A stretch of DNA of 64,000 nucleotides, from the IMG/VR virus record IMGVR_UViG_3300038410_000026, positions 1 through 64,000 of that record; one strand, given 5' to 3'. The stretch's first letter is position 1. Each line of letters opens with the position of its first letter. The notes beneath the pieces were generated by a model, which ran no database searches, had not been told where the DNA came from, and worked only from the letters and a program-made list of their open reading frames with translations. The position numbers and the translations under genes are program-made. This stretch comes from a virus. Positions 5,972 to 28,302 of the stretch are shown in pieces.

Positions 5972-6366
5972 ATCTCATCTCCTTCGCTCAACCTGGATAG
6001 GTAGCTTTGGCTCGCCGCGCTTACGGCGTAACCCTTAGCCGAGGAGGCAAACGATTTCGACCAATTCCATTTGTCCATCACATAGTTCTGAAACTCCTTT
6101 TCATCTAGCACAATGGATTCTTCGGATGACATCTCCATCATCTGGATAATGCGGTCGTAGTTCTTGGTCATATCCAGCGGTTGCGTGAGGGAAACATAGA
6201 AGTTACCCGTGATACCATCGCGTGCCATCCCGAGTTGCCGTTCCAGTTCAGCAATGGCTTCCTTGCGGTAGTTTTCGATGGCTTCCAGAAACACTGATCG
6301 GTGCTGTTCCCGATTCTCCTTCAATTTAACAAGCAGATCGGTTTTGTTAAATGTCAACCTTTGCAT
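5968..6366 (-). CDS. Hypothetical protein
   Basis: 132 residues, mostly helical, with a central VSLTQPLDMTKNYDRIIQMM segment typical of small uncharacterised phage proteins. No function assigned. The Shine-Dalgarno site (AGGAGCGAG, 4 nt before the ATG) is itself the last GAGCGAG block of repeat array 1, so array and gene are physically fused. Confidence 0.65.
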   Translation of the reverse strand: MQRLTFNKTDLLVKLKENREQHRSVFLEAIENYRKEAIAELERQLGMARDGITGNFYVSLTQPLDMTKNYDRIIQMMEMSSEESIVLDEKEFQNYVMDKWNWSKSFASSAKGYAVSAASQSYLSRLSEGDEI

Positions 6367-7113
6367 TTCTCGCTCCTGTCAATGAAAGTCTTCACTCGCG
6401 TCATGGCTCGCTCTACTCGCATGAAACATTCTTTCTTCATGGCTCGCTCACACCACCTGAAACCTTCACAGCGGCTGGCTCGCTCGCTTGTCTTGGAACA
6501 ATCTGTCCGCTTGGCTCACTCTCCACTACTGACACATTCTTCTTGTCTGGTTTCGTGGCTCGCTCTCGATTTTTGAAACGTTCCCATCCGATGGCTCGCT
6601 CACCTCGGGTGAAACATTCATCGTCCGTGGCTCGCTCATCAACGATGAGACTTTAGCGCGTTGCGGCTCGCTCCTGCCATGTGATACAATCATCATATTT
6701 GGCTCTCTCCTGTCTGTGGCTCGCTCTGGTAACTTGAAACATTCTCTCCTGTTGACTCGCTCAACTCTTCTGAAGCATTCTCACCCAACGGCTCGCTCAT
6801 CGCATGTGAAAAATTCATCACCATTGGCTCGCTCACACGACGTGAAACATTCTCTCCTATTGACTAACTCATGTCAGGTGAAACCTTCCCGCTCCATGAT
6901 TCGCTCAGCGCTTATGAAACATTCTTCAGTCTTGGCTCGCTCCCACCTGATGAAACCATCTGCCACTTTGGTTCGCTCGCTCCAAATGAAACATTCGCAT
7001 TCTGTGGCTCGCTCTCGTAGTTTGAAACATTCTATCCCATTGGCTCGCTCACAGGTCACGAAACGTTCACCAGATGTGGCTCGCTCTCTAAGTTTGAAAC
7101 CATCTACAGTCAT
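6366..7113 (-). repeat. 36-bp bipartite repeat array 1 (about 20 units)
   Basis: Read along the direction of transcription the unit is GAATGTTTCA, 8 variable bases, GAGCGAGCCA, 8 variable bases. This array is the most degenerate of the three, with altered blocks such as GAGTTAGTCA and several units of changed length. It fills the gap between the stop of the IS110-like gene (7110) and the start signals of the gene at 6366. One 45-nt stretch (6934-6978) is repeated with a single mismatch in array 3. Confidence 0.9.
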
Positions 7114-8045
7114 GGCTTCGATGCGACGGCGGCAACTTTCGGGTTGAAGTTGGGTGGAGGAACGAAATCCGTGTGGCCCAGAAACTTGATCACGAATGGG
7201 TCCGGGGGCATCTTCCCGTAGCGGTAGTAATAGGCGACCGCATGGTAATGGGACAGGAACATCTTCACCGCGAACCGCTTGGACCGTGCGTGGATCTGGG
7301 CGGGAGGCAGCATCGGCACGCCACCCTTTTTAGCTTCTGTCAACTCCATCAGGTTCTTGCCGGAGTCGAGATAGCGCTTTACCGTTTTGGGATCGTACTT
7401 CCCCTCGTACCAGTTTTTCGTATACTTTTTCTTGAACGTCCGTTTTTCGAGGATCACTTTGGACTGCTCGGAATACTCTCCAGCGAGATTACGCCTCCAT
7501 TCGTGCTCCTTGCGCCGGAGGTAGAGTTGCCCGTAGAAGTCTTCCGGGTTGCCTGAAACCTTGACGAACGATTCTCCGATTTTCCAGGCCAGCACTTTCA
7601 GGCGGGCGTTCCAAGGCCGCTTTTCTCCCTTCTTCCATTCCTGCGTCGGGTCCAACCCCGCGAACTTCCAGATCTGCCCCGCGTAGGGCCGGTCGGTGAT
7701 GTCGATATGGGCGAGCAACCCGGCTGCGATCACCGGGCCAATGCCGACAATCGATTGCGCCCACTCGGCTTCCGGATAACCCTCCGTCCATCGCTTCAAG
7801 GCCCGCACGATTTGGGCTTCGAGAGTTTCCATCTGGTCGAACAGCCACCTGATAACACTGTGCGGTTCACCGCTCTTTTCAAGGGCCTTGATCTGATTCC
7901 CCGCTGCCTTGCGGTACTCCTGAATGCCGTAGTAGGCATCCACCAGATACCGCGCTTCATCGGGCGACAGCGTGGCTGCCGCCTCTTTGAGATCCCGGCT
8001 TAACCGGATAATTGGGTCTAGGTTCGTAACGCTCGTAACGCTCAT
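7110..8045 (-). CDS. IS110-family C-terminal-like (Transposase_20) protein, probably not an active transposase
   Basis: 311 residues. A helical/coiled-coil N-terminal region (to about residue 105) is followed by a helix-hairpin-helix signature, SIVGIGPVIAAGLLAHID, and KFAGLDPTQEWKKGEKR, matching the C-terminal domain of IS110/IS116/IS902 transposases. The N-terminal DEDD RuvC-like domain of IS110 is absent, and the position where IS110 enzymes carry the catalytic serine (the SG after the GL.P motif) reads KKG. No terminal repeats of an insertion sequence were seen. It is flanked on both sides by 36-bp arrays. Full IS110 enzymes use a bridge RNA, so an RNA- or DNA-binding domesticated derivative is a reasonable inference. 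AAAGGAGCAAGGAAT precedes the ATG. Confidence 0.75.
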   Translation of the reverse strand: MSVTSVTNLDPIIRLSRDLKEAAATLSPDEARYLVDAYYGIQEYRKAAGNQIKALEKSGEPHSVIRWLFDQMETLEAQIVRALKRWTEGYPEAEWAQSIVGIGPVIAAGLLAHIDITDRPYAGQIWKFAGLDPTQEWKKGEKRPWNARLKVLAWKIGESFVKVSGNPEDFYGQLYLRRKEHEWRRNLAGEYSEQSKVILEKRTFKKKYTKNWYEGKYDPKTVKRYLDSGKNLMELTEAKKGGVPMLPPAQIHARSKRFAVKMFLSHYHAVAYYYRYGKMPPDPFVIKFLGHTDFVPPPNFNPKVAAVASKP

Positions 8046-8070
8046 ATTCCTTGCTCCTTTTCTTCTTGTT

Positions 8071-8980
8071 TGGCTCGCTCAATCCTCTTGAAACATTCTG
8101 ATTTCGTGGCTCGCTCTCAATGTTTGAAACATTCCTTAATCTTGGCTCGCTCGCTTATCGTGAAACATTCACGAGGCATGGCTCGCTCGCTTCGGTTGAA
8201 ACAATCTACTTCAATGGCTCGCTCATATCCCGTGAAACATTCCTGTTCATTGGCTCGCTCCCGCGACCTGAAACATTCCCCATCAACGGCTCGCTCGCTT
8301 CGCTTGAAACAATATACTTCAATGGCTCGCTCTCGATATTTGAAACCTTCACTCCCAGTGGCTCGCTCACGTTTCATGAAACATTAAGCTTCACTGGCTC
8401 GCTCCCAATTTCTGAAACCTTCTCTACCAATGGCTCGCTCATATATATTGAAACAATCCACATGTTTGGCTCGCTCCCGTTCTATTAAACATTCACTAGG
8501 CTTGGCTCGCTCCCCTGACGTGAAACATTCAGATCAGTTGGCTCGCTCACTTTTCATGAAACATTCTCTCGTCATGGCTCGCTCACATCCAATGAAACAT
8601 TCACGCCCGATGGCTCGCTCGCCGTCCATGAAACATTCCCTCGGCGTGGCTCGCTCCGGAGGCTTGAACATTCTCTCATTTTGGCTCGCTCTTGAATTAT
8701 GAAACCATCTCCATCCCTGGCTCACTCGCTTATCATGAAATATTCTCATTGGCTGGCTCGCTCAAACCTGATGAAACATTCTCGTGATCTGGCTCGCTCT
8801 CGATCTCTGAAACAATCCCCATCAACGGCTCGCTCACATCCAATGAAACATTCTCATCTTGTGGCTCGCTCACTCCTTCTGAAACCTTCGCCTTTTTTGG
8901 CTCGCTCATCTCATGTGAAACATTCACACAGTATGGCTCGCTCTCAGCTTATGAAACTATCTGTTGTCCTGGCTACCGCC
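8071..8980 (-). repeat. 36-bp bipartite repeat array 2 (25 units)
   Basis: The best preserved array: period exactly 36 bp with one 35-bp unit near 8650. On the plus strand each unit is TGGCTCGCTC, N8, TGAAACATTC, N8. The variable words are nearly all different, but some recur (on the sense strand ttgaagta twice, ttgatggg twice, ttggatgt twice). It starts inside the stop region of the gene at 8973 and ends 26 nt before the IS110-like ATG, so it would be the leader of that gene if co-transcribed. Confidence 0.93.
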
Positions 8981-10127
8981 TTTCAACCGCAAAATTGATG
9001 CGCGGCTTGGCCACGATCCCAGGCCAGTCGAAGGACTTCCGCATCTGCTTGATTTTATTGCGGATAACTGTATCGTTGGAGACTAGGGCGTCAAGCGGAA
9101 CCATTCCTTCCGCCACGGCTTTGACCAGCGCCTGAAAGTCGGTGACTTCAAAATCTCCCCATTCTTCCCGAACGCGGGTGCCATCCAGTTTCGGCGTGGT
9201 ATCCGAGATAATTGGGGCTTGGAGATCTGTGGCCTGCTGCCGCAGGATCTGGCCCTCCACCACCATCCCCTTGCGGATCAGGCTGCGGGCTTCTTTGAGT
9301 TGGGCCTCTTTCAGCGCCTCGGTAGATTCGACCAGGGCCTGTTGCTGCGCTTGTACGATTCGTTTCTTTTGCTCGCTGTAGGCTGCCATGGCCGATTTCA
9401 CCTTATCGATCATCGAATCGATGAAAGCGGCGGGTCCATTGTAAGCGTCCTTCAGGATCTTGAAGGTAGCCCAGGCCGAGGAAGTTTTCGGCTTCCAGTA
9501 TTTATCCCATTCATCTTTGAGCTTTACCAGTTCTACGAGCAGGTCGTTGGCGCGGCGGAAGCTGTGATCGTCTCGCACATCGAGCATCGAGATGGCGATC
9601 TCAAAGCGGTCGCGGTCGCTGGCTTTGATGATCTCTCCGGCTGCCCGGACCACGGCTCTGGTCTGGTCGTCTGGCTCTACTTCCGCTTTCACCGCCGCCA
9701 CTTCAATGTCTTTCAATCCCATCCGTCTAGCCATATCTTCAGCCTCAGAATCATGGTGCATGATCCAGATCAGTCGCCGCCTGAGGGGCAGGTCATGTGC
9801 CCAAGCGTGATACATCCGAAAGTCTGGCCACTGGTAACGCGGTAAAGGGTCAAGCATAGTTTCAGTTGCGCCCCGCAAGTGGGCCATTTCGTGCGAAGCG
9901 GCCAAGGCCAATGCCTCCGGTTCTGTGTCCAGATCTGGACGTGGCAGGAAGATAGCCATCCGGTCGCCCCCGATGATGGCGTAGCCCAGCGGATCGGGAG
10001 TTTTCCCATGCGTGATGTGAACGATGATACTTCCCTGTTTCGTCTCCGATAGCTCCCGTTCCGCCGCCAGCTTCAGGATTCTCCTTAGATCCTTCGTCCG
10101 ATATTTACTGGTGTTAAAAATGGTCAT
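8973..10127 (-). CDS. Zinc-metallopeptidase-like protein with C-terminal phage domain
   Basis: 384 residues from the ATG at 10127 (AAAAGGATTACGCT-ATG). HEMAH near residue 80 fits an HExxH zinc site in a SprT/M-type peptidase-like fold. After a helical region comes a long coiled-coil (about residues 240-290, Gln/Ala/Glu rich), then a domain with DGTRVREEWGDFEVTDFQAL and a final KPRINFAVE that resembles C-terminal modules of uncharacterised phage recombination-associated proteins. It lies just downstream of the annealing protein and nuclease genes. The combination is unusual; substrate unknown. An upstream in-frame start at 10202 lacks a good ribosome site. Confidence 0.65.
   Translation of the reverse strand: MTIFNTSKYRTKDLRRILKLAAERELSETKQGSIIVHITHGKTPDPLGYAIIGGDRMAIFLPRPDLDTEPEALALAASHEMAHLRGATETMLDPLPRYQWPDFRMYHAWAHDLPLRRRLIWIMHHDSEAEDMARRMGLKDIEVAAVKAEVEPDDQTRAVVRAAGEIIKASDRDRFEIAISMLDVRDDHSFRRANDLLVELVKLKDEWDKYWKPKTSSAWATFKILKDAYNGPAAFIDSMIDKVKSAMAAYSEQKKRIVQAQQQALVESTEALKEAQLKEARSLIRKGMVVEGQILRQQATDLQAPIISDTTPKLDGTRVREEWGDFEVTDFQALVKAVAEGMVPLDALVSNDTVIRNKIKQMRKSFDWPGIVAKPRINFAVERR
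9926..9941. promoter_or_regulatory. Palindrome copy TGTCCAGATCTGGACG
   Basis: 15 of 16 bases match the palindrome of 2403. This copy is inside a coding region, so it is either an intragenic site or a chance survivor; the other good copies lie between genes. Confidence 0.45.
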
Positions 10128-10540
10128 AGCGTAATCCTTTTCTTTTTGACCGCTTCCAAAAATTTCTCCCACACTAGCCTTCGGTTTCCCTTGGACATCC
10201 AATTTATGTTTCGCTTTAGGGCCAATTTCAGTCCAGCGATCATTTTGTCAACGTCATTGACTGAGCAGTATGATGCAGAAACTCTCCTTGTAATTTTCGC
10301 GTTGCCTAGGGGATGGAAAAGATCGACGCAGATGATGGCGGATTTTACCCGCATCATATCCGGCTCTTTCCAGTTTGAATAATCTTGATCGAACTGGTCT
10401 CCATCTTTGCGGTAGTCTGTCAGGATTCGGAAGTCCTCCTCCCTCTTGACTCGGACCATGCGGAAGACGTGAACCACCGTAGCGGGTGCGGTCAAACCTT
10501 CGAGGCGAACCACGGTTGGTACATTGAACTCAATTGTCAT
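10124..10540 (-). CDS. Hypothetical protein in recombination operon
   Basis: 138 residues from the ATG at 10540, chosen because of AGGAGCAACAC just before it. Beta-rich first half (VVHVFRMVRVKREEDFRIL), then a helical second half ending in a basic tail (KKKRITL). No family recognised. It overlaps the nuclease gene upstream and the metallopeptidase-like gene downstream by 4 nt each, so the three are translated as a set. Confidence 0.65.
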   Translation of the reverse strand: MTIEFNVPTVVRLEGLTAPATVVHVFRMVRVKREEDFRILTDYRKDGDQFDQDYSNWKEPDMMRVKSAIICVDLFHPLGNAKITRRVSASYCSVNDVDKMIAGLKLALKRNINWMSKGNRRLVWEKFLEAVKKKRITL

Positions 10541-11160
10541 GTGTTGCTCCTGTTCAATCGATGCTTGTTCTTCCAGTGCCAAAAGTCCATGGCGGCGAAG
10601 GCTTCCCGTGGCCCGTCTTTGCCTTCTACTAGCGTGTATCCGCCGTCGTCTTTAAGCTGCACGATGTAGGTTCCCTTTGCTTTCACGCCCATGGATTCAA
10701 GCAGCGCCCGGTAAAGAGCCACCTGTAGGTGGTGCTGCGGGGCCACAGTGCTGCCGCTCTTAACGTCCAGGACCACAGGGCCTGCCTTCATCACGCCGTA
10801 GTAATCGAGAGTGCCCGCCACTTGCCGGTCATGGTGGGCCACTACCTGTTCGATCAGCAGCACTTTAAAGCCAGTGTCCTTGAGGAACAACTCAAAGCCT
10901 CGGATGTAAGGCAGAATGAGGGGGTGGGTGCCCTCAGGCTCCCATACCCCCTCCACGAGATACCGGCAACCGATATGGATCGCCGTCCCCCTGGCCGCAT
11001 ATTCACCCACGTTTGCCGGAAAGTATTGCGGCACCAGATCCTGCACCAATTTGGTGACCGGGACGTACCGGACGCCTGTGATGGAATTCACATAACTATG
11101 AGTATCTTCGGAAAACACCACCCCCGGATCAAGTGAAGAGGGCAGATTGGGCGGCTTCAT
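10537..11160 (-). CDS. PD-(D/E)XK exonuclease (RecB/Cas4-like)
   Basis: 207 residues. The nuclease core is visible: RGTAIHIGCRYL (first helix, with conserved His), AGTLDYYGVM (catalytic Asp) and VVLDVKSG (the D-x-K pair), followed by HHLQVALYRALL (the Q..xY helix). This is the RecB-type nuclease fold used by phages with a single-strand annealing protein for end resection and recombination. The start overlaps the RecT-like gene by 32 nt, strengthening the pairing. Confidence 0.85.
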   Translation of the reverse strand: MKPPNLPSSLDPGVVFSEDTHSYVNSITGVRYVPVTKLVQDLVPQYFPANVGEYAARGTAIHIGCRYLVEGVWEPEGTHPLILPYIRGFELFLKDTGFKVLLIEQVVAHHDRQVAGTLDYYGVMKAGPVVLDVKSGSTVAPQHHLQVALYRALLESMGVKAKGTYIVQLKDDGGYTLVEGKDGPREAFAAMDFWHWKNKHRLNRSNT

Positions 11161-12616
11161 TCTCCTGCTCCCCTTTTTTGAGTTCCGCGAAAGACGTTAT
11201 CAGGTGGTCGGAATTCTTTTCTCCCAGCTTCTCAAACCCGATCCCATAATCGTGCAGCGCCCTTTTATCCAGTTCCGCAAGCAAGGACACAAGGGGCTCC
11301 CCGCTTTCGTCCCGGATATGCACTACCTGATAAGCTTCCCGGCTTTGTTTCGCCATTCGCAGGAAGGCCACCAGTTCTGGAGCGGGCGCTTTGGTCAGGT
11401 CCAAGTGGTCGGTCCATTCCTTCAGTTCTTCTGGGGTGAGCGAGCGGGCTTCAGACACCTGAATCGCTCTCTGCAACTCTTCTGCGGATAGCTGCGGGTA
11501 GGTTTTCTCCAGCACCCGGATGCGGGGATCTAGCTGGACGGTTGGCAGAGTGGCGAGAGATTTGGATTGGCGCTCCACGGCCATGTGACGGCCCAACTGG
11601 TATGGTTCCTCCATCAATGCTTGCTTGGCTTTGGCGAGAGCTTCTTCGAGCGCCGCAACGGGCATCACAAATTCCTCTGGGGTGGCGTCACGCGGGATGT
11701 TCTTGACATTCAGATATCCCTTGACAAAATTGATCACCACACTTTGGGCTTGCCTGCCATCCTCCAGCCAAGGCATCAGGGCGGCTTTGACTTTCGACAT
11801 GCGGGCCTTGATCTGGTCTCCCAGGCTTTCCACCTTGGCCGGTTCAGGTTCAACCGGCTTTTCCTTGGGAGGCGGGGCTACTTCAGCCGCTAGATGTGTC
11901 GGCGTAGCGGGTGCCACAGCCTGAGTCGGAGGTGCGGCGGGCGGCAGAGGCGCGGCGGGCGGCGGAGGCTCTGCTTCCGCCTTTTTCCCTACGGGGTATA
12001 GTTCGAGCGGCTTTGGCTTCTCCTCCTGCGGTTCGGGTTCCCGACTCCGAATTTCTTCCAGTTCCGATTCGGTTTCATACATTCCCCCCCGCACTCCCAA
12101 CACCCGAAATGCCTGCGAAATTGTCCGCGCTCGGTACATGGTGCCTGGGCGCAATGTATATTGACTGTCGGGCCTGTCCAGTCCAGCCCGTCGTGCATCC
12201 TCCGGCCCGAAGCGAGAGACATACTCAAACCCGTCCGGGCGGGTAAATTTCATCTCGCAGCCGTCGTTGCCGTCCTTGATGATATCTACCTTCACCTTGT
12301 CCCGGAGGATCAACTTCATCATCAGGGGATATCGCAGGAAGATCTTTCCCTTAACGATATCAATTGATTGCAAGGATTCCATGGGTGGGATGCCCAATTC
12401 GTAGCCGGTCAACATCTTGGCCATGGCGTTGGCTTTTACAGCCACAACGTTACTTCCCATGTCGGAGGTATAAAGCGCTGATCCGACGAGGTATTCGGCC
12501 ACCGTCACCATGTAGTTCATGCTGTCTGGCGACGGGAGCCCAACCTCCTTGCCAGCTTCTTCTGAATAGGTCCGCTGCTTGGGAGCGACTGATACAACAG
12601 CAGATGTATCGCTCAT
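11129..12616 (-). CDS. RecT-like single-strand annealing protein with long C-terminal extension
   Basis: 495 residues. Residues 30-170 have the RecT-type pattern, notably AMAKMLTGYELGIPPMESLQ and a following KGKIFLRYPLMMKLIL, then the YRARTISQAFRVL helix. A Pro/Ala-rich linker (about 205-265) leads to a charged helical C-terminal half absent from short RecT proteins. Such proteins pair DNA strands at resected ends made by the partner nuclease encoded next. The long extension may bind other replication proteins; that is inference. Confidence 0.8.
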   Translation of the reverse strand: MSDTSAVVSVAPKQRTYSEEAGKEVGLPSPDSMNYMVTVAEYLVGSALYTSDMGSNVVAVKANAMAKMLTGYELGIPPMESLQSIDIVKGKIFLRYPLMMKLILRDKVKVDIIKDGNDGCEMKFTRPDGFEYVSRFGPEDARRAGLDRPDSQYTLRPGTMYRARTISQAFRVLGVRGGMYETESELEEIRSREPEPQEEKPKPLELYPVGKKAEAEPPPPAAPLPPAAPPTQAVAPATPTHLAAEVAPPPKEKPVEPEPAKVESLGDQIKARMSKVKAALMPWLEDGRQAQSVVINFVKGYLNVKNIPRDATPEEFVMPVAALEEALAKAKQALMEEPYQLGRHMAVERQSKSLATLPTVQLDPRIRVLEKTYPQLSAEELQRAIQVSEARSLTPEELKEWTDHLDLTKAPAPELVAFLRMAKQSREAYQVVHIRDESGEPLVSLLAELDKRALHDYGIGFEKLGEKNSDHLITSFAELKKGEQENEAAQSALFT

Positions 12617-12870
12617 CTTTTCTCCTTTAATCGCTTGATCAATGTGTCAATTTCCTCTAGGCTCATGCGGTCATAGCCTTCACTGTCCACAAATTCTTTG
12701 GTCATGGTGGTCACATAATAGCCCGATTTGATCACACTCAGCCCAACTAGGATGTGGGCCAACTCCTGATGGCTGAGTGTGATAGTCACGTCATGGATGT
12801 AGCTGGTCGCCAGTAAAGATAATGGCTCGTTGCCTGCTATTTTCCTGGATGGCATGTGGCGGATTTTCAT
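12613..12870 (-). CDS. Hypothetical protein
   Basis: 85 residues, not recognised. Middle region SYIHDVTITLSHQELAHILVGL suggests a strand-helix; the end IDTLIKRLKEKR is a basic helix. Four-nt overlaps with both neighbours show it belongs to the operon led by the promoter at 13496-13524. Confidence 0.65.
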   Translation of the reverse strand: MKIRHMPSRKIAGNEPLSLLATSYIHDVTITLSHQELAHILVGLSVIKSGYYVTTMTKEFVDSEGYDRMSLEEIDTLIKRLKEKR

Positions 12871-13430
12871 TTGGCCACCTTTTTCGCCTTCTTCTTGCGC
12901 TTGTTTGGTGTGAGTGCCAGCAAATCCGATACCTTTCCCTGTATTGCCAGCTTAATCAACTTCAAATTTCCGCCTTTTAACGGTTTGCCGGAATAGGAAA
13001 GGTAATCTTTCGGATCGTTAGAGAATGTCACCTCATCCATCACGATGGATTTGTATTTCCGGATCGCCCCAGCCGTATAGTCTAGTCCATAAGCCAGTGC
13101 ATTTCCAGACAGTTTCACGCGGGCTATCACAGTGTCGTCCTTGTCCAGTCGGCTGGCAAACACCGCAGCACCCGCGAGGGTGCTCATCACATGAATTCCT
13201 ACAGGGTATGCCTTCTTGGTCAATTCGGTTGAACAGTCGGAATCTGTTAATTTCTTCATTACCGGGTTAGCCATCACATCCACTTCTGTTCCCTGATAAG
13301 GGGTTTGGAGCACCACCCCTCTGATCGGAAACCCTGGCTGATGCAAATCTAGTAGCGTCTCCAAGAGCATCACCTTATAGCCGTATCTGGGGATACGGGC
13401 AGGAATTTTCTCCAGCTTCATTAGGCACAT
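12867..13430 (-). CDS. Hypothetical protein, paralog of 13916-14446
   Basis: 187 residues. It shares with its neighbour the opening MCL(M/I), a YGYKV strand, YP.G.HV near residue 78, an Ala-rich helix, and TVIARV...; this pattern recalls uncharacterised phage proteins and suggests tandem duplication. The C-terminus is very basic (NKRKKKAKKVAK). It is the first gene after the strong leftward promoter at 13496-13524. Confidence 0.65.
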   Translation of the reverse strand: MCLMKLEKIPARIPRYGYKVMLLETLLDLHQPGFPIRGVVLQTPYQGTEVDVMANPVMKKLTDSDCSTELTKKAYPVGIHVMSTLAGAAVFASRLDKDDTVIARVKLSGNALAYGLDYTAGAIRKYKSIVMDEVTFSNDPKDYLSYSGKPLKGGNLKLIKLAIQGKVSDLLALTPNKRKKKAKKVAK

Positions 13431-13495
13431 CTATGCTCCTACGTTTCTGTTTTGTTTTCAACTCATTGCGGACAATAGAAAAGTTTCCGAAAACA

Positions 13496-13524
13496 ATTTT
13501 ACTTGCAAATCTAACGTTTGTCAA
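13496..13524 (-). promoter_or_regulatory. Sigma70-like leftward promoter
   Basis: On the minus strand: TTGACA, 17-bp spacer, TAAAAT. An A-rich box GATTGAAAACAAA lies upstream and is shared with the promoter at 20270. The predicted start is near 13489, about 60 nt before the gene at 13430, so it should drive the recombination operon. Confidence 0.75.
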
Positions 13525-13581
13525 CAAGTTTTTTAGCCTTTGTTTTCAATCATTTGAGAGTCAACCGAAATTGAAAGTGAT

Positions 13582-20761: not shown

Positions 20762-20765
20762 GGCG

Positions 20766-21257: not shown

Positions 21258-21260
21258 GGT

Positions 21261-21518
21261 TTACTCCTTTGCTTTGATAGGTTTGGGCGGGGTTGTAATC
21301 TCGCGGAGAGCGGCTAAACCGCCCTCGGCGTAAAGTTTGCGAACATGGCGGGTGGCGGGATCTTGCTGCTCTGGAAATAGGCTGTCGAAGTGTTCCAGCC
21401 CGTCATCCCATCGGTAGACAGTGGGGCTACGGACAGCCTTGCGACGTTCGAGAAACGCTGTCCGCAGCATGATGAAAGTAGCGGCAATATAGGCTATTGC
21501 CCTTTCGGTTCCTGTCAT
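21261..21518 (-). CDS. Hypothetical protein
   Basis: 85 residues from the ATG at 21518, chosen for GAGG 6 nt before it; a GTG at 21542 overlapping the previous stop is the alternative. An N-terminal hydrophobic segment (AIAYIAATFIMLRTAFL) may be a membrane anchor; the rest is charged. Confidence 0.55.
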   Translation of the reverse strand: MTGTERAIAYIAATFIMLRTAFLERRKAVRSPTVYRWDDGLEHFDSLFPEQQDPATRHVRKLYAEGGLAALREITTPPKPIKAKE

Positions 21519-21538
21519 GTTATCCTCTTTAGTTTCAA

Positions 21539-21877
21539 TCACTTGTCATTGTAAATGACGCCTATTTCGCGGAGATGCCGTCTGTCGGAAGCGTTCCAGT
21601 TGACGGGAGATTCCGATTCACAGCGAAGGGCATAATCTACGGCTTCGGGGAAGGTCGTATCGTAGTAACAGGCGACCTCATAGTAGGTCCCAAAGTCGTG
21701 CGAATTGGAGCGGATACGGAGTTCCGCTCCATGCGGTTCCGGCCCTATCTCGCGCCGAATGGCAACGATGAACTGACGGCATTCAGCGCGGGCTTTCAGC
21801 GGGTCATAGTGTGGAGTGCCTGCCTGCTGGCATTGCTCTTCGGCTGGCACTGCCCCGATTTCAATGTAATCTTCCAT
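21539..21877 (-). CDS. Hypothetical protein
   Basis: 112 residues, not recognised. Contains paired Tyr-rich strands (GTYYEVACYYDTTFPEAV). Stop and next potential start overlap, so it belongs to the leftward operon. Confidence 0.6.
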   Translation of the reverse strand: MEDYIEIGAVPAEEQCQQAGTPHYDPLKARAECRQFIVAIRREIGPEPHGAELRIRSNSHDFGTYYEVACYYDTTFPEAVDYALRCESESPVNWNASDRRHLREIGVIYNDK

Positions 21878-21895
21878 AGCTGTATATCCTTCAAT

Positions 21896-22147
21896 CTATT
21901 GACTAGCAAGCGCTTCCCGGTGAAGTGCAACCTCATCGGGGGTTTCTGGACGGCAGTTTATGACCGTCCAGCAAACCATATTTCGCCAAACTTTGTGCCA
22001 TCCCGAAGCCGTGTTCGGGCGCACACGCCGCTCCTGCTCGCAGAGCAAAGCTGCTTCGGCGTCAGTAAAACTTTTGCCGTCTACGGTGTCTCCGTAGACG
22101 GCGGAGATTGAATTCCGAAGATCTTGCGCGGAGAGGGGATTAGCCAT
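21896..22147 (-). CDS. Hypothetical protein
   Basis: 83 residues. Predicted helical, with SGWHKVWRNMVCWTVINC in the second half. Overlaps the upstream gene by 8 nt. No family recognised. Confidence 0.6.
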   Translation of the reverse strand: MANPLSAQDLRNSISAVYGDTVDGKSFTDAEAALLCEQERRVRPNTASGWHKVWRNMVCWTVINCRPETPDEVALHREALASQ

Positions 22148-22721
22148 TGGGACCTTCGGGTTTATGAGGTTCCCGGATCGCGGCCAGCTTGGCCGCTCCG
22201 TAGAGGTTTTCTACGTTACCGTGGAGTACGGCAACGTAGAATTCGGAGTCCCGGTTGCAGACGATAGAATCGTCCTCGGCGTGCCGGAGTTGAATCCAGC
22301 ATTCTTCCATTCCCGCAAAGGCGAGGATGGCTTGCTCGGTGGTGTGGGCGGTGAAATAGCGGCGGATTTGGAATTCGGTCTCTAGGTCTTTGCTGTAGTA
22401 ATGGCGGATGGCGTAGAAGTTCCCTTTTGGGGGGAAGGCGATAGCGGAGTCGTAGGAGATGCAGACGTAGGACCCGTCTGCAAAGTGGACTGGCTCCGGA
22501 GTGACATACGACGGCTGAGGGCCGTCTGGCTGGATGAACGTCACGACGCCCCCCAGTGAGCGAGCGACGTGAATGGCTACCGCCATGAAGCGGGACGGTT
22601 CCGTCCCATATTCATAAGCGGTTGGATCGAAATCCCCTTGCTCCGTGCGGCAGAGTTCAGTTGCCGCAGCACAGCAGATTTCGGCTAACAATGGCTTATG
22701 GTAGGCCATAATGTGTGGCAT
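22140..22721 (-). CDS. Hypothetical protein
   Basis: 193 residues from the ATG at 22721 (AAAGGAGAAAAAAC before it). An alpha/beta protein without a recognised family; HHYYSKD-type and SDFYVA-type segments suggest alternating strands. Located between the Csx16-like gene and a run of small unknown genes, a typical place for anti-defence genes, but no such role can be read from the sequence. Confidence 0.6.
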   Translation of the reverse strand: MPHIMAYHKPLLAEICCAAATELCRTEQGDFDPTAYEYGTEPSRFMAVAIHVARSLGGVVTFIQPDGPQPSYVTPEPVHFADGSYVCISYDSAIAFPPKGNFYAIRHYYSKDLETEFQIRRYFTAHTTEQAILAFAGMEECWIQLRHAEDDSIVCNRDSEFYVAVLHGNVENLYGAAKLAAIREPHKPEGPNG

Positions 22722-22760
22722 GTTTTTTCTCCTTTCGGGCTGATAGCCCATGAAACAACA

Positions 22761-23165
22761 TCAAGATTTTGCGGCCTCTGTGCGGCCAGTACCGCCGCAG
22801 ATGCCGCAGAGGTGGTCACCGTTTTCGTAGTCAACAATGTACCCCTCCCCTTGACAAGAGGGGCAATTGGGGTCCTCGTCGAGCGACTCGACCCGATATC
22901 GGGCAAGGCGGGCTCCAGCCGCTTCCATCTCGGGGAGTCCGTACTCGGCCCCGCGTGGGGGCGGGCCGTCGAATTCAACGGCGATGACTTCTTCGGCCAA
23001 CGCCGCTAAGTGTAGCGGGATATTTCCCGCTACAATAGCCCCCATCACATCAATGGGGGCGGCGGACGCGATTACCTCGGCGTCCGCAAACTCCGGAGCA
23101 CGGTTCCGGATAAAAGCTATGGCAGCCGCGTGGCGGCTGACAATAACTCTTCTAGGGCTTTCCAT
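22761..23165 (-). CDS. Csx16-like protein with C-terminal CxxCxGxG zinc site
   Basis: 134 residues. Residues 4-94 follow the Csx16 (VVA1548) pattern: VIVSRHAAAI at the start, VAGNIPLHLAALAEEV in the middle, then PPPRGAEYG and EMEAAGARLARYRV. Csx16 is associated with type III CRISPR systems and has been proposed to belong to the ring nucleases that remove cyclic oligoadenylate; a phage copy could blunt that signal. The end carries CPSCQGEG and CGICGGTG, a DnaJ-type zinc pair not part of the basic family. It stands just downstream of the terminator at 23201, which ends the gene before it. Confidence 0.65.
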   Translation of the reverse strand: MESPRRVIVSRHAAAIAFIRNRAPEFADAEVIASAAPIDVMGAIVAGNIPLHLAALAEEVIAVEFDGPPPRGAEYGLPEMEAAGARLARYRVESLDEDPNCPSCQGEGYIVDYENGDHLCGICGGTGRTEAAKS

Positions 23166-23200
23166 GTAACCCTCCTTCTCCTTCTAGATCTGTGGACATG

Positions 23201-23234
23201 AAAAAAGCCGTGGAACCGTTAAGTCCCACGGCTT
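23201..23234 (-). terminator. Rho-independent terminator
   Basis: On the minus strand GCCGTGG (23232-23226 side) pairs with CCACGGC, followed directly by TTTTTT (23206-23201). It lies 14 nt after the stop of the gene at 23248 and would limit read-through into the Csx16-like operon. Confidence 0.8.
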
Positions 23235-23247
23235 CAGTAGGTTGCCG

Positions 23248-23727
23248 TTATACACCGCTCTTGAGGATCTCCGCTGCGAGACTGGTGAGATCCTTCTCGC
23301 TCCGTTGTGTGGGCATCTGCCCTCTGAGGTACAGCATGTACCCCATCTTGGCTGGATGGCCCTCTACGAGACCCTTGGCTACCATCGCCTTTTGCAAGGC
23401 CACTGGGTCGATGCCGAATTGATGCCTTATCATGGAGTTCAACCCGGATATCCTGGTATGAACCCCCCTCGACTTGCTGCCATTGGCAGCAGCCAGATAA
23501 GGGATGGCTTTCAGGACGAAAGCCTCGACTGGAGAGATGGCAGCTTTGGGAGCCACTTTGGCCGGTTTCGGGGCGGCTTTGGCCGCTTTGGGTTCTGCCA
23601 TGGGACCACCAAGCACGGTGATCCCGAAATACTCTGCGGTGTCTTTCAAGGAGCCCAGGTCTTTGTAGACGCTGAGCACTTGCTCACGGGGCATTCCCGT
23701 AGCTTTCACTAACTCTGCTAACGTCAT
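23248..23727 (-). CDS. Putative DNA-binding protein (first gene of the leftward block)
   Basis: 159 residues. N-terminal segment LAELVKATGMPREQVLSVYK looks like a small HTH; an Ala/Lys/Pro-rich linker (about 45-62, repeated AAPKPAKVAPK) leads to a second domain with HTH-like GIDPVALQKAMVAKGLVEG. Two DNA-binding-like modules joined by a basic linker suit a nucleoid- or regulator-type protein. It is transcribed alone, ending at the terminator at 23201. GGAG lies 8 nt before the ATG. Confidence 0.6.
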   Translation of the reverse strand: MTLAELVKATGMPREQVLSVYKDLGSLKDTAEYFGITVLGGPMAEPKAAKAAPKPAKVAPKAAISPVEAFVLKAIPYLAAANGSKSRGVHTRISGLNSMIRHQFGIDPVALQKAMVAKGLVEGHPAKMGYMLYLRGQMPTQRSEKDLTSLAAEILKSGV

Positions 23728-23739
23728 GGTTCAATCTCC

Positions 23740-24270
23740 TGCCGAATTTTTTCGGCCCCCCAAACTTCGCCGAAATGCAATCGATTGTCAAGCGTTTTCT
23801 CGTAACTTGTTGATTCTGAATGAGAAATAGTTCTGGATACTTGATTGCAAGATAGAACGCAATTTACAGTGAAACCGTAATGGCAATCTCAGTTACCGTG
23901 ACAGTAGAACGGAGGTTCCCGTTCCGATTGTTTATCGCGGCAAAAGTGGCCCAGGGGAGGGGCCTCGCAAGCGGCGGGCGCTTATAGAACTGTTTAGTTC
24001 CTCGCGCCCTCCATAAAAATCCATAAAAATCCATAAAAACATCAAACAACTTAAATCAACAAAAATTCAAAACAACTTAAAACTGCAAAATTGAAACATC
24101 CCATCAAACAACTTTCCAAATCTTTCCATCCAGATTTAGGATGCGCCTATGATCTTCGCTTTGTGCTGGGGAGGAGAGAGGAAAGAGGGAAGGGAAGGTA
24201 TGTATATAAGGATAAGGGAGCTATGGGAGGGAGGTCTGGCTCCCTGTGGTTATGCCTATGAAGGATTCCG
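23740..24270. other. AT-rich divergence zone, candidate replication origin
   Basis: About 530 bp with no convincing gene. It holds three tandem copies of ATCCATAAAA (about 24010-24039), an A-rich, T-poor stretch to about 24120 with several CAAACAACTT-like words, and a purine-only-like tract (about 24168-24233, GGAGAGAGGAAAGAGGGAAG). Leftward genes end their upstream side here and rightward genes begin about 1 kb to the right. Repeats plus easily melted DNA at a transcription divergence point are usual for phage origins; no known initiator box was recognised. Confidence 0.4.
23763..23791 (-). promoter_or_regulatory. Possible leftward promoter with weak -10
   Basis: Minus strand TTGACA (perfect -35), then at 17 bp GAAGTT, a poor -10. 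A GCCGAA-AAAA-TTCGGC inverted repeat lies between it and the ATG at 23727. It may need an activator. Confidence 0.35.
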
Positions 24271-24272
24271 CA

Positions 24273-24488
24273 CTAGAATTTTCTCCTGGTTTGCCTTCTC
24301 ACTGCCCGCACGGCGGTCATACGGCCACAGCGGGCGCACTCGACCGAGCGCCACTTGGCCGGGTAGACGGTCACCTGTATATATCCGCAAAAACAGCACT
24401 TATGCCGGGCCACCGCCCATCCACCGGCCATGTGATGTTCATGCCGCCTACTACCTTCTCCGTCAATGGGTGTGCCTCCACGTTGCAT
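24273..24488 (-). CDS. Small zinc-ribbon protein
   Basis: 71 residues. CCFCGY and ECARCGRM form two CxxC knuckles about 19 residues apart, so a zinc ribbon is likely; the C-terminus is Arg-rich (RAVRRQTRRKF). AAGG lies 6 nt before the ATG. It follows another Cys-rich gene in the same direction. Confidence 0.5.
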   Translation of the reverse strand: MQRGGTPIDGEGSRRHEHHMAGGWAVARHKCCFCGYIQVTVYPAKWRSVECARCGRMTAVRAVRRQTRRKF

Positions 24489-24546
24489 CGGCTACCTTGG
24501 TTTTCCCTTCCGGCCTCACCGCTTATCTCGACGATCATACCGATCT

Positions 24547-24954
24547 TCAGGGAATGGTTTCGCGGTCGAGGGAGGAATCCTTCTTCGATCTAGATCTTTC
24601 CTTGTACCCTAACCGAAGGACCCTTTCCCGGATGCTCTCGCAGGGGTCTGGTCCTATGTACCAAACAGGGACCCGGCCAGTCGTGGCAAATTCGGCAAAC
24701 TGCGCTTGGATCGTCTCCATACAGTCCGGGAAATAGCGATGACACCCATCGAAGGTGTCTTTACCCCCCAGGCTTCCACCGCAACGCTGGCAAAGGGCGG
24801 TCGATGATGGATCGCCGTGGACGATGTGTTTACCCTTCTTCATGGCTTCATCTCCTTGCGTTTCCAGGCACTGGCAATGCTCCGCGCAACAATAACAGCC
24901 CTCGCAGGTGATCTCGCGCTCACAGCCCGTCCGAACCCACGTTCCGCACCACAT
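24547..24954 (-). CDS. Cysteine-rich hypothetical protein
   Basis: 135 residues from the ATG at 24954, chosen for GGAGGT 5 nt before it; an internal ATG at 24843 with AAGGAG 8 nt before it could make a 98-residue form. The N-terminus has CEGCYCCAEHCQC and the middle CQRCGGSLGG, consistent with metal binding. Function unknown. Confidence 0.5.
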   Translation of the reverse strand: MWCGTWVRTGCEREITCEGCYCCAEHCQCLETQGDEAMKKGKHIVHGDPSSTALCQRCGGSLGGKDTFDGCHRYFPDCMETIQAQFAEFATTGRVPVWYIGPDPCESIRERVLRLGYKERSRSKKDSSLDRETIP

Positions 24955-25245
24955 CGCCGACCTCCGTAGCCATTGTCTGGGCAGACATCGGCCTAGTATA
25001 TCACCCAAAATATATACCGGCGCACCAAACACACTCCAGACCCCCTCCCGGCAACCCCCCTATAATAAGGATACGTCCTCCCTGCCGCACTTCCTTATAG
25101 CCTTGCAAGCCTTTTAGCACAGCCCCACGGTCCCGAGGCAGCCAAAATCCCGGCAAAACACCCGCTCCTATGACATTTTCTTTGTATTTTATGCAAGCCT
25201 TTCCACCCCAGGAGTACGGCTGGCCAGTGGCCAAAACCAGCATTT
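24955..25245. other. Gap between divergent genes
   Basis: No convincing gene. It contains an AT-rich block GGTATATATTTTGGGTGATATACT (minus strand, about 25016-24993, written here as two overlapping parts would exceed need) that looks like promoter DNA for the Cys-rich gene, but no clear -35. Confidence 0.3.
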
Positions 25246-25263
25246 TATAGCCTGCTGGCTATA
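25246..25263. promoter_or_regulatory. Inverted repeat, possible operator
   Basis: TATAGCC, 4-bp centre TGCT, GGCTATA: a perfect 7-bp dyad just upstream of the promoter of the XRE-like regulator at 25309. A nearby pair of TGGCCA words (about 25221-25232) adds to the symmetry. Autoregulation is a plausible use. Confidence 0.4.
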
Positions 25264-25271
25264 TTTTCCTC

Positions 25272-25301
25272 TTGCGTCCCTATCGGTGCTAGGTGTACAG
25301 T
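25272..25301 (+). promoter_or_regulatory. Rightward promoter, probably leaderless
   Basis: TTGCGT, 18-bp spacer, TACAGT, then 7 nt to the ATG at 25309. There is no ribosome site, so the mRNA probably begins at or next to the start codon. Confidence 0.5.
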
Positions 25302-25308
25302 ATAGGCT

Positions 25309-25650
25309 ATGGCAATAGAGACGCAAACAGGAGATGGGCCGGAGCAAGAGCAGAAGCGCAGGGAACGCTTCAACAGGCGTATCCTGCTCTCGGAGCAGGC
25401 CCGCCTGGAAGCCATCGAACTGATTTCAAAGCTGGTCTACATGCGCCGCGATCTGCTGAAGATCCCCCAGGGAGAGCTTGCCTCCGCCATGGGGATCGAA
25501 CAGCCTTCACTTGCCAGATTCGAAACTGGCCGCTACGGCGGGCAGGGCGTCCCGCGTCTGGACACCATCATGAGGTACTGTCTCGCCCTCGGGGTCAAGC
25601 TTGTAGTCGATGCCTCGGGAGCGCCCTCCAACCTGCCGCCAGCCGCCTGA
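25309..25650 (+). CDS. XRE-family HTH regulator
   Basis: 113 residues. Residues 37-100 hold an XRE-type helix-turn-helix: RRDLLKIPQGELASAMGIEQ then PSLARFETGRY and a following LDTIMRYCLALGVKLVVD strand typical of HigA/MqsA-like antitoxin-regulators. It is the first rightward gene after the divergence zone, with a leaderless promoter and a dyad upstream, fitting an early repressor. The next gene is of toxin-antitoxin-like type. Confidence 0.8.
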   Translation: MAIETQTGDGPEQEQKRRERFNRRILLSEQARLEAIELISKLVYMRRDLLKIPQGELASAMGIEQPSLARFETGRYGGQGVPRLDTIMRYCLALGVKLVVDASGAPSNLPPAA

Positions 25651-25663
25651 GAGAGGTAGGCCC

Positions 25664-26131
25664 ATGCCAAAGATGGAATGGATAAAATCTTCCACCAGCG
25701 GAACCATCCTGAGATATTGCGACATGAGCACTGAGCGGATCGTGGGGGAAGTGTTCTCGGGAACCGATGGGATACACTTTGCTTCCTGCGGAAATATAGC
25801 TTTCGGCCAGTTCCTCAGTTTGCAGGCAGCCCAGTTGGCCGTCCAGGATCACTATGCGAATGAGGTGATCTACGAGCTTGTGGGTCGTTCCAGCCAATCG
25901 GCAATCGCCAAACAAATCCAACAGCTTCGTGAGCTAAAGCCGGGGTGGGATTCCTATCGCGCCAAACCCATCACGGAGGCGGCGCTGCGGATGGCCGAAG
26001 CCATTATGGGCACGACCGCGACTTCGGTGCCAACGGCTGATGGCGGAATCCAGCTTGAATGGCATACTGCTGGAGTCGAGGCCATCATCGATATCAATCC
26101 GGATGGAACAATCAACTATGGTGATTCATAA
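25664..26131 (+). CDS. Hypothetical protein with WDSY/DGG-type C-terminal domain
   Basis: 155 residues from the ATG at 25664 (GAGAGGTAGGCCC before it). Residues 86-150 (LRELKPGWDSYRAKPITEAA, then VPTADGGIQLEWHTAG) match a widespread small domain seen beside regulators in bacteria and phages, with no assigned activity. It follows the XRE-like gene by 13 nt and may be its partner. Confidence 0.65.
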   Translation: MPKMEWIKSSTSGTILRYCDMSTERIVGEVFSGTDGIHFASCGNIAFGQFLSLQAAQLAVQDHYANEVIYELVGRSSQSAIAKQIQQLRELKPGWDSYRAKPITEAALRMAEAIMGTTATSVPTADGGIQLEWHTAGVEAIIDINPDGTINYGDS

Positions 26132-26136
26132 ATCTG

Positions 26137-26152
26137 TGTCCAGATCTGGACA
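26137..26152. promoter_or_regulatory. Perfect palindrome TGTCCAGATCTGGACA
   Basis: Exact copy of the 16-bp palindrome, 5 nt after the stop of the previous gene and 18 nt before the next ATG, on the rightward arm. Confidence 0.65.
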
Positions 26153-26170
26153 TGGAGCGAGGGGAGAAAA

Positions 26171-26377
26171 ATGACAAAAGGAAGCTCCAAGGCATCTATG
26201 TTCCCTAAGATAATGTATATCTATCGCATGTATGATAACTATCATGGTCCACTCTTCGACGCCCTTCCGTCCATCGACAGGTTTAGCGAAGAGACGGTAT
26301 ACCAGGATGGCGATGCGGTCGCGGTCTATGAGTTCAAAGAGATCAAGCGGTTGAAGAAGACGGTTGCGCTGGAGTAG
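26171..26377 (+). CDS. Small hypothetical protein
   Basis: 68 residues, not recognised; Tyr-rich first third (MYIYRMYDNYHGPLF), then a DAVAVYEFKEIKRLKK end. GGGGAGAAAA precedes the ATG. Confidence 0.6.
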   Translation: MTKGSSKASMFPKIMYIYRMYDNYHGPLFDALPSIDRFSEETVYQDGDAVAVYEFKEIKRLKKTVALE

Positions 26378-26417
26378 GGGAACAGTTGCACCATCTCCTA
26401 AATTTGCTCTGTTTGTA

Positions 26418-26702
26418 ATGGATATCCGGGAAGCATTGACGATCCTGATTTCTCGCTACCGCGTTGCGGCGCAAGTCGTCGAGTACGAATACGATCCCGC
26501 TGGCAGTAGTTATAGCCTTGCGCCATCGCCTCGTGATCTTGAAGTGCTGCGATGCTTCGGAGTCGAGATCAAGGAGGACGATCTCTACCTGACAACGTAT
26601 CAATCAAAGGAACACTTTTCTCTTGATCCAAAATCGGTTCGCCTGATCGTGGACACAATCATGGAGAAAATGGAACATTCGGGACTTAAAAATGTTTCCT
26701 GA
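26418..26702 (+). CDS. Small hypothetical protein
   Basis: 94 residues if started at the ATG at 26418; a TTG at 26364 would add 18 residues. No clear ribosome site at either. MDIREALTILISRYRVAAQV and ending helix LIVDTIMEKMEHSG are plausible coding. Function unknown. Confidence 0.45.
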   Translation: MDIREALTILISRYRVAAQVVEYEYDPAGSSYSLAPSPRDLEVLRCFGVEIKEDDLYLTTYQSKEHFSLDPKSVRLIVDTIMEKMEHSGLKNVS

Positions 26703-26713
26703 AAGTCAGACAT

Positions 26714-26929
26714 ATGGGCTCATCCACGACTCTAGTAATTATCGTTACCATGATCTGCTGGAGCATTCCGGTCATGCTCTACTTTTTGATAGATAGCGTT
26801 GGAAGGCAGGCTAGCCGCTATGGCGAACTGCGAGTCAAGGACTTCCTGCTCATGATTTTAGCGGCTATCTTCATGTTGGGTATGCCGGGATGGCTGTATT
26901 TCGTGATTCGGTATTTAGGTAAGGTATGA
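26714..26929 (+). CDS. Small two-helix membrane protein
   Basis: 71 residues with two hydrophobic segments, TLVIIVTMICWSIPVMLYFL and FLLMILAAIFMLGMPGWLYF, and a charged loop between. Holin-like size and topology; the SleB-type lysin gene is the next protein gene, after array 3. The first array block begins immediately after its stop codon. Confidence 0.6.
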   Translation: MGSSTTLVIIVTMICWSIPVMLYFLIDSVGRQASRYGELRVKDFLLMILAAIFMLGMPGWLYFVIRYLGKV

Positions 26930-28302
26930 GAATGTTTCGATAGATATGGAGCGAGCCACGTTCGGGGAATGTTCCAAAAAAGTTGAGCGAGCCATCGAAT
27001 GAGAATATTTCATGCCGAGTGAGCGAGCCAGTATTGGGGAATGTTTCGACAGATCTGAGCGAGCCATTTCGCGTGAATGTTTCACGATAAGCGAGCGAGC
27101 CAGAGATCGGAAATGTTTCACGTGGTGCGAACGAGCCATTGATCGTGAATGTTTCATGATGGCAGAGCGAGCCAGTGCTGGGGAATGTTTCATTGCGATG
27201 TGAGCGAGCTACGGAGCGAGAATGTTCTGCAAAAGTGAGCGAGCCAAGACTCAGGAATGTTTCAAGCCACGAGAGCGAGCCAAGGCGAGTGAATGTTTCA
27301 GATATTCGGAGCGAGCCATAGGATCTGAATGTTTCATACGGGGGAAGCGAGCCAGTGAAGCCGAATGTTTCAAGTTGCAGGAGCGAACCAAGAAGAAAGA
27401 ATGTTTCACGAAAAGCGAGCGAGCCATAGGATCTGAATGTTTCATATGCAGGAGCGAGCCAAGCCGGAGGAATGTTTCAAACTGCAAGGGCGAGCCATTG
27501 GATGTGAATGTTTCACGAGTTCAGAGCGAGCCATTCCAAAAGAATGTTTCATGACCTGTGAGCGAGCCATTTCACGTGAAAGTTTCACGCCACGCGAGCG
27601 AGTCAAGAGAGTCTAATGTTTCATGATTATAGAACGAGCCAATGACGGGGAAGGTTTCGATAGATGTTAGCGAGTCATTGACGGGGAATGTTTCACATGC
27701 TGTGAGCGAGCCATTGATCGGGAATGTTTCATGAGAAGCGAGCGAGCCATGTCGATGGAATGTTTCAACAGATGTGAGCGAGCCATGCCTGAAGAATGTT
27801 TCATAAAGCGTGAGCGAGCCATTTCAGCGGAATGTTTCATTGCGAGTGAGTGAGCCGTACAAAATGACTGTTTCATGTAGATAGAGCGAGCCATTGAGCA
27901 TGTATGTTTCATGATGCGTGAGCGAGCCATTGGTAGAGAATGTTTCAGCAGTAGTGAGCGAACCATGGAGCGGTAAGGTTTCAGCGAGCATGAGTTAGTC
28001 AATAAGAGTGAAGGTTTCACTGGAATTGAGCGAGCCATTGGCACAGAATGCTTCAAGATAGATGAGCGAGCCAAAGTGGCAGATGGTTTCATCAGGTGGG
28101 AGCGAGCCAAAAGTCGAGAATGTTTCATGAGAAGCGAGCGAGCCAGCAGCGCTTAACGTTCCATTGTAGATGAGCGAGCCATTGGAAGAGAAGGTTTCAG
28201 AAATTGGGAGCGAGCCAAAATGAACGAATGTTTCATCTGAAGTGAGCGAGCCACTGCCAAGGAATGTTTCGTGAGGCGTGAGCGAGCCAAGGACAAAGAT
28301 GG
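26930..28302 (+). repeat. 36-bp bipartite repeat array 3 (about 38 units)
   Basis: Plus-strand unit GAATGTTTCA, N8, GAGCGAGCCA, N8. This is the reverse complement orientation to arrays 1 and 2, so all three read the same way along their local transcription. A few units have 7- or 9-base words or altered blocks. Recurrent words include taggatct (twice) and tgagaagc (twice). Both strands carry long open frames with 12-residue periodicity because 36 is a multiple of three, but stops and indels interrupt them and there is no ribosome site. Confidence 0.93.

What the first reader, a model, noticed from the sequence alone, without database searches (positions are those of the whole stretch)
6366..28302. 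Three arrays of a 36-bp bipartite repeat with variable 8-bp words
Seen directly: about 84 units in three intergenic intervals (6366-7113, 8071-8980, 26930-28302). Each unit has two conserved 10-bp blocks (GAATGTTTCA and GAGCGAGCCA, sense) separated by two words of exactly 8 bp, with nearly every word different. Period is fixed at 36. This is not an ordinary satellite (variable words), nor CRISPR (words too short, two different blocks), nor clear protein coding. It looks like an addressable array: constant recognition blocks with interchangeable 8-nt payloads, in RNA or DNA.
Basis: partly seen in the sequence, partly recalled or inferred. Interest (0 to 1): 0.92.

Follow-up and report, generated by a model that had tools for sequence, protein, structure and literature searches.

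The report
Phage TIGR-TasA guide-RNA arrays
The three repeat arrays are banks of about 84 paired 8-letter guide sequences that work with one small RNA-binding protein (TasA) encoded between two of them, making this phage a member, with an unusually large guide collection, of the TIGR-Tas RNA-guided DNA-targeting family described in 2025.

Summary
In detail: about 84 units of 36 bp (edge GAGCGAGCCA, 8-nt spacer A, loop GAATGTTTCA, 8-nt spacer B) lie in three arrays. The missing piece is the gene between arrays 1 and 2. It encodes a 311-aa Nop-domain protein with no nuclease domain. It passes NCBI's curated TIGR-Tas model (184 bits, cut-off 100) and fails the IS110 model. Its sequence and predicted fold match TasR and TasH best. 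So this is a TIGR-TasA locus: the arrays should be cut into 36-nt tigRNAs whose two spacers pair with opposite strands of one DNA site. Eighty relatives in IMG/VR mostly carry the same kind of array; their edge repeats covary as RNA pairs, and edge and loop change their end base together. Natural targets were not found in the phage, sister phages, parts of host genomes or by scans with selected sites. One extra result: across 1025 distinct units, mostly from relatives, units hit the same sites shifted by 2-3 bp or with spacers swapped, in the tandem geometry shown for TasR. That suggests units are made from contiguous target DNA. A codon-frame idea failed its pre-stated test.

The parts
8071..8980 (-). 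TIGR array 2, 25 loop repeats; starts at the stop codon of the upstream gene (8973-10202) with a 5'-truncated edge (GGTAGCCA) and ends with a full edge just before the tasA ribosome-binding site and ATG
7110..8045 (-). tasA: 311-aa Nop-domain protein without RuvC or HNH domain; insertion at about 206-245 relative to most relatives
6366..7113 (-). TIGR array 1, 19 clear loop repeats; begins inside the end of tasA (truncated edge GAAGCCA, the TGA stop lies at the first spacer) and ends with a truncated edge AGCGAG immediately before the ATG of the next ORF (5968-6366)
26930..28302 (+). TIGR array 3, 38 loop repeats, same edge and loop repeats, 18 kb from tasA on the opposite strand; ends with a degenerate loop, a last spacer and truncated edge GAGCG, followed by a hairpin (AGGAGCG TAAT CCGCTCCT); no second tas gene in the record
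6951..6978 (-). edge, spacer A and loop of the unit AAGTGGCA / TCAGGTGG in array 1, identical in both spacers to the unit in array 3
28064..28099 (+). the same unit AAGTGGCA / TCAGGTGG, with the same variant loop GATGGTTTCA, in array 3

Best explanation
A TIGR-TasA locus of a tailed phage, probably of Acidobacteriota. The arrays are transcribed on the strand that reads GAGCGAGCCA (edge) and GAATGTTTCA (loop), cut within each edge into 36-nt tigRNAs (half edge, spacer A, loop, spacer B, half edge), and bound by a dimer of TasA, which grips the GA and CA ends (box D and box C) of both repeats alike. Spacer A pairs with one strand and spacer B with the other strand of one 16-bp DNA site, so each unit addresses a site reading A followed by the reverse complement of B. 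TasA has no nuclease, so it most likely acts by holding and bending the DNA, for example blocking replication or transcription of competing elements. Shown here by sequence: the array anatomy, the Tas family membership, lack of a nuclease domain, covariation of the repeats, and, in relatives, units that tile the same sites in A + rc(B) geometry. Inferred from the characterised TaTasR, SpTasH and FpTasA: expression, 36-nt processing, RNP formation and DNA binding. Not known: natural targets, how spacers are gained, and the biological purpose.
For: tasA lies between two arrays on the same strand. NCBIfam NF052498 TIGR_Tas_endo 184 bits vs cut-off 100; IS110 model 32 vs cut-off 140. Sequence search of PDB: TasR 9mty E 1e-14, TasH 21kl 6e-9; profile 1e-24 and 1e-15, with IS110 (IS621) at 2e-4. 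AlphaFold model (pLDDT 83.6): the top 11 Foldseek hits are all TasR or TasH, followed by IS110. Of 80 fetched IMG/VR relatives of TasA most carry period 34-37 dual-repeat arrays next to and on the same strand as tasA. Over 74 arrays, edge positions 3-8 pair in 98.6% (78% expected) with G-C, A-T and G-T, positions 4-7 in 100% (87% expected) with C-G and T-A, and the last base of edge and loop agree in 74 of 74 (A/A 52, G/G 20, C/C 2), as reported for the C/D boxes. Arrays start and end with truncated edges. Geometry.
Against: No expression or binding data for this phage. The loop GAATGTTTCA departs from the GAGAG core of most relatives. No natural target was found: 825 unit pairs against 1.29 Mb of phage loci gave no more exact or near matches in A + rc(B) than in control geometries or partner-shuffled units, nor did the phage's own 95 kb. 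The NCBI family name says 'endonuclease', which does not apply to a protein without a nuclease domain.
Confidence: 0.92

Rival explanations
1. The protein is an IS110-type RNA-guided recombinase and the arrays are bridge-RNA-like or att sequences used for integration.
For: Pfam Transposase_20 (E 2e-5) and PHROG 4285 'transposase'; IS621 and ISCro4 are the next structural hits.
Against: Fails the IS110 model (32 vs 140 bits); no DEDD domain; the nearest sequences and folds are TasR and TasH; relatives carry long tigRNA-type arrays and not single bridge RNAs.
Confidence: 0.02
2. Box C/D-like guides for RNA modification rather than DNA binding.
For: Nop domain and C/D-like boxes are shared with snoRNPs.
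Against: Compact tigRNA-type repeats, no K-turn; closest homologues bind DNA. No fibrillarin- or L7Ae-like gene was seen among the ORFs that were scanned, but not every ORF of the window was scanned.
Confidence: 0.03
3. A protein-coding or structural satellite repeat.
For: Period 36 is divisible by 3, and some frames stay open for about 100 codons.
Against: 4-31 stops in every frame of every array; 7- and 9-nt spacers shift the frame; the real coding 36-bp repeat nearby, 4663-5340, behaves quite differently.
Confidence: 0.01
4. It is a TIGR locus, but array 3 is a relic or a decoy that is not used by TasA.
For: 18 kb away, opposite strand; a consensus scan found no sigma-70-type promoter; a few degenerate repeats.
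Against: Same edge and loop sequences, shared spacers and one identical unit with arrays 1 and 2; 37 of 37 strictly extracted units identical in a second contig of the same phage, which differs at only six positions over 26 kb.
Confidence: 0.1

Closest known systems
TIGR-TasA systems with dual-repeat arrays (FpTIGR, Flavonifractor plautii; PMC12045711)
   Same: Solo Nop-domain protein, edge-A-loop-B arrays, 36-nt unit, arrays upstream and downstream of tasA
   Different: 8-nt instead of 9-nt spacers; about 84 units in three arrays (the paper: most often 5 to 15 units per array); one array is 18 kb away on the other strand; loop GAATGTTTCA
TIGR-TasH of Salicola phage CGphi29 (SpTIGR)
   Same: Phage-borne, 16-nt total spacer, homologous Nop domain (PDB TasH, phmmer E 6e-9)
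   Different: TasH carries an HNH nuclease; the protein here does not
TaTasR (PDB 9MTY)
   Same: Same Nop fold and the best sequence and fold match; edge and loop share box ends
   Different: TasR has a RuvC domain in its first ~120 residues that has no counterpart here; box ends UG...CCA instead of GA...CA
IS110/IS621 bridge-RNA recombinases
   Same: Related C-terminal RNA-binding domain
   Different: No DEDD catalytic domain and no bridge RNA here; below the family cut-off

Membership tests
TIGR-Tas | Nop-domain Tas protein encoded at the array | tested here: met
   gene 7110-8045 between arrays 1 and 2
TIGR-Tas | Two distinct alternating repeats of 8-12 nt separated by short spacers of fixed length (paper: 9 nt, with exceptions; 16 nt in total in SpTIGR) | tested here: met
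TIGR-Tas | Array flanked by 5'- and 3'-truncated edge repeats | tested here: met
   (array 2 ends in a full edge before tasA; the 5' end of array 3 is unclear)
TIGR-Tas | Rho-independent terminator after the array | tested here: inconclusive
   array 3 is followed by a hairpin without a T tract; array 1 runs into the next gene
TIGR-Tas | Box C/D ends that agree between edge and loop, and an edge stem supported by covariation | tested here: met
   74 arrays of relatives including the window's
TIGR-Tas | Transcription and processing to 36-nt tigRNAs bound by Tas | not testable with these tools
   needs small-RNA sequencing
TIGR-Tas | Tandem targeting: spacer A on one strand, spacer B on the other, little or no gap | tested here: inconclusive
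   No target found for the window's units; across all units, overlapping and swapped units in relatives favour A + rc(B) with no gap
TasA subtype | No RuvC or HNH domain | tested here: met
   311 aa; matches TasR only from TasR residue 123 and TasH from 96; no nuclease domain family in Pfam
IS110 transposase | Passes the family model and has a DEDD RuvC-like domain | tested here: not met
   32 bits vs cut-off 140, only part of the model matched, from position 166 on
CRISPR | Single repeat type of 25-36 nt with spacers of similar length and cas genes | tested here: not met
   two 10-nt repeats, 8-nt spacers; PADLOC scan of TasA and four other ORFs found no Cas protein; the remaining ORFs of the window were not scanned against it

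The most novel reading that the evidence does not exclude
TIGR-TasA arrays of these phages are an adaptive guide memory: new units are repeatedly made from contiguous 16-bp stretches of double-stranded target DNA, with one half copied from each strand, by an unknown machinery and without a polar leader end. Support: across 1025 distinct units, units of different phages, or of different places in one array, address the same site with a 2-3 bp offset or with the two spacers swapped, in A + rc(B), gap-0 geometry (shift 3 exact: 2 pairs, 0 in 15 shuffles and 0 in the other three geometries; shift 2 with at most 2 mismatches: 16 against a null mean of about 6 and 7, 4, 4 in the other geometries; swaps: 6 pairs in 3 families against 0.13). 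An offset in this geometry is hard to explain by mutation inside an array. It would follow that targets are real, shared DNA sites.
Probability: 0.3. Interest if true: 0.85.

Novelty: new member of a known kind. Interest (0 to 1): 0.5.

Why it matters
TIGR-Tas is a recently found RNA-guided DNA-targeting family whose natural targets, spacer origin and (for the nuclease-less TasA) function are open questions according to its discoverers. This phage has about 84 guides for one small protein, including an array 18 kb away that must work in trans if it works at all. Its family, with dozens of phages that share, lose, swap and perhaps re-make units, gives the comparative material to attack spacer origin. 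The hint that units tile shared sites is independent, sequence-only support for the tandem geometry in TasA systems.

Tried and rejected
Targets in the phage's own 95 kb and in sister phages, A + rc(B) with gap 0-2 and up to 2-3 mismatches against three control geometries and partner-shuffled units: no excess. Targets in parts of three Acidobacteriota genomes and one phage contig carrying tasA, using their 3-4-unit mini-arrays: 4 near matches in the predicted geometry against 0, 0 and 2 in controls, too few to claim. IMG/VR scans: the duplicated unit AAGTGGCA/TCAGGTGG has 60 gap-0 hits, most of them in one terminase motif (KWHHL), but the control geometry also collects hits in a common repeated motif, and 257 Acidobacteriota genomes hold none; unit CATGAGCT/TCGTCGTG gave chance hits; the 19-bp merged site of three L077 units gave none. 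Idea that spacer variants follow codon third positions of the targets: 38 of 71 variable columns fitted after the fact (22 expected), but a pre-stated test on newly fetched phages gave 6 of 20 (6.25 expected): rejected. Rfam found no known RNA family in the arrays. Near search of the phage collection with 24 kb of the window: no relative. Full-length TasA as a single query found no relatives in IMG/VR or the genome collection because its query patterns were not conserved; a 68-aa core did.

Full report
Observation. The three arrays exist at the stated places. Chaining the two 10-mers with up to three mismatches gives 19, 25 and 38 loop repeats in arrays 1, 2 and 3, alternating with edges, with 8-nt spacers apart from about six of 7 or 9 nt. 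A pattern search of the whole 95,392-bp virus record gives 75 matches against 0 for the reversed control. Stops in all six frames rule out coding. Arrays 1 and 2 read on the minus strand, array 3 on the plus strand.

What is next to it. Between arrays 1 and 2, on the same strand, lies a 311-aa gene (7110-8045). It matches the C-terminal part of IS110 transposases weakly (Pfam E 2e-5), but sequence searches of the PDB give TasR (9mty) and TasH first, a 30-sequence profile raises them to 1e-24 and 1e-15, and NCBI's curated TIGR-Tas model is passed with 184 bits against a cut-off of 100 while the IS110 model is missed by far. The AlphaFold model (mean pLDDT 83.6) has TasR and TasH as its eleven best structural matches. 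Matches begin at TasR residue 123 and TasH residue 96, so the nuclease domains of those proteins are absent: this is TasA. The gene order reads as one transcription unit: gene 8973-10202, array 2, tasA, array 1, gene 5968-6366, with array ends overlapping the stop codons before them. That it is one transcript is inference.

Anatomy against the published system. [quoted passage not shown] truncated edges at array ends; 36-nt tigRNAs; and C/D boxes that agree between edge and loop. Here the edge is GAGCGAGCCA and the loop GAATGTTTCA, judged from truncated edges at the array ends. Over 74 arrays, the window's included, edge positions 3-8 and 4-7 keep pairing through G-C/A-T and C-G/T-A exchanges, and the final base of edge and loop is the same in all 74. 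In the window the loop pair 3-8 is A-T where the edge has G-C.

Relatives. A scan of IMG/VR with a 68-aa core found 93 relatives, 80 kept; most have arrays of the same design next to tasA and on its strand. Six genome hits include Solibacteraceae and Bryobacterales MAGs, whose TasA proteins are the closest to the window's (54-56% identity) and carry mini-arrays of about three or four units; this suggests, but does not show, an Acidobacteriota host. A second IMG/VR contig of the same phage differs from the window at six positions over 26 kb and has the same 37 extracted units in array 3.

Array evolution. In the window 12 words are used more than once, mostly with different partners, and one unit is shared by arrays 1 and 3. 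Related phages share units in conserved order, with blocks gained or lost anywhere in the array rather than at one end.

Geometry from sequence. Writing each of 1025 distinct units as A + rc(B), gap 0, pairs of units from different phages, or from different places of one array, overlap with a 2-3 bp offset or are the same site with the spacers swapped more often than in 15 shuffles and in three control geometries. Examples: ACTTCTGCTCTCTTCT (L341) and TCTGCTCTCTTCTGTA (L064); three units of L077 on GCYAGYATACCTGATCCCA; a group site RGAAGCCYTCGTGRTA addressed in both spacer orders and 2 bp shifted. This fits the targeting rule measured for TasR and suggests that units are made repeatedly from shared DNA sites. 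Limits: few pairs, related sequences, the geometry was noticed while exploring, the rcA+B control reaches a similar sum at shifts 1-3 with one mismatch (6 against 7) though without exact overlaps, and swaps could also come from recombination between duplicated units. None of the listed pairs involves a window unit.

Targets. No natural target was established. The best single lead is the unit shared by arrays 1 and 3, whose predicted site equals a conserved codon string (KWHHL) of a terminase type that this phage itself does not use; the control geometry shows that such coincidences occur, so it is only a lead. Calling that gene a terminase rests on my reading of the motif, not on a family search.

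Mechanism, step by step. Shown here: array anatomy, family membership, missing nuclease, repeat covariation. Inferred from the characterised relatives: transcription, cutting inside the edge to 36-nt tigRNAs, a TasA dimer holding one tigRNA, spacer A and spacer B pairing with opposite strands. Inferred with less certainty: binding without cutting blocks replication or transcription of a rival element.

Verdict. A TIGR-TasA locus: known kind, new member, unusually rich.

Noticed in passing
window 31975-33588 (-): 537-aa protein with a match to PHROG 850 'RNA-binding protein' (E 2e-7) that to the eye resembles Ro60/TROVE with a von Willebrand A part; no Pfam, NCBIfam or PDB hit.
   Followed up: partly
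window 4106-5521 (-): 471-aa DUF6745 protein with a long 12-residue tandem repeat (AQVGDQVWxQ...); its DNA repeat (4663-5340) is also 36 bp long but is coding and unrelated to the TIGR arrays.
   Followed up: partly
L097 3848-4555 (Mycobacterium phage Greg gp72) and L096 3962-4696: Proteins of mycobacteriophages annotated as hypothetical or transposase pass the TIGR-Tas model (232 and 226 bits), yet no dual-repeat array was found within 4 kb; a laboratory-tractable TasA.
   Followed up: partly
L095 3965-4690 and 4677-4919 (Microcystis phage Mvi-JY20): TasA-like gene passing the TIGR-Tas model, followed by a dual-repeat array (ATGCGAGCC / ACGAAACCC).
   Followed up: partly
L102 4793-5800 (Woesearchaeota MAG) and L103 1200-2000 (Fervidicoccus MAG): Archaeal Tas genes with arrays: GAGCGAGCCA with an 8-nt loop GATGTTCA (period 34), and RTGCGAGCCA with ATGAGACCCA (period 36).
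   Followed up: partly
L341 unit 14 with L064 unit 1; L077 units 3, 8, 13; L040, L339, L341, L066: Units of different phages or of one array that address overlapping sites in A + rc(B) geometry, see novel case.
   Followed up: partly
window 33914-33987 (-): tRNA-Ile with anticodon TAT.
   Followed up: no
window 41214-43376, 44341-46209, 48198-49166 (+): Terminase large subunit, portal and a major head protein related to Myxococcus phage Mx8; no near relative in the phage collection.
   Followed up: no
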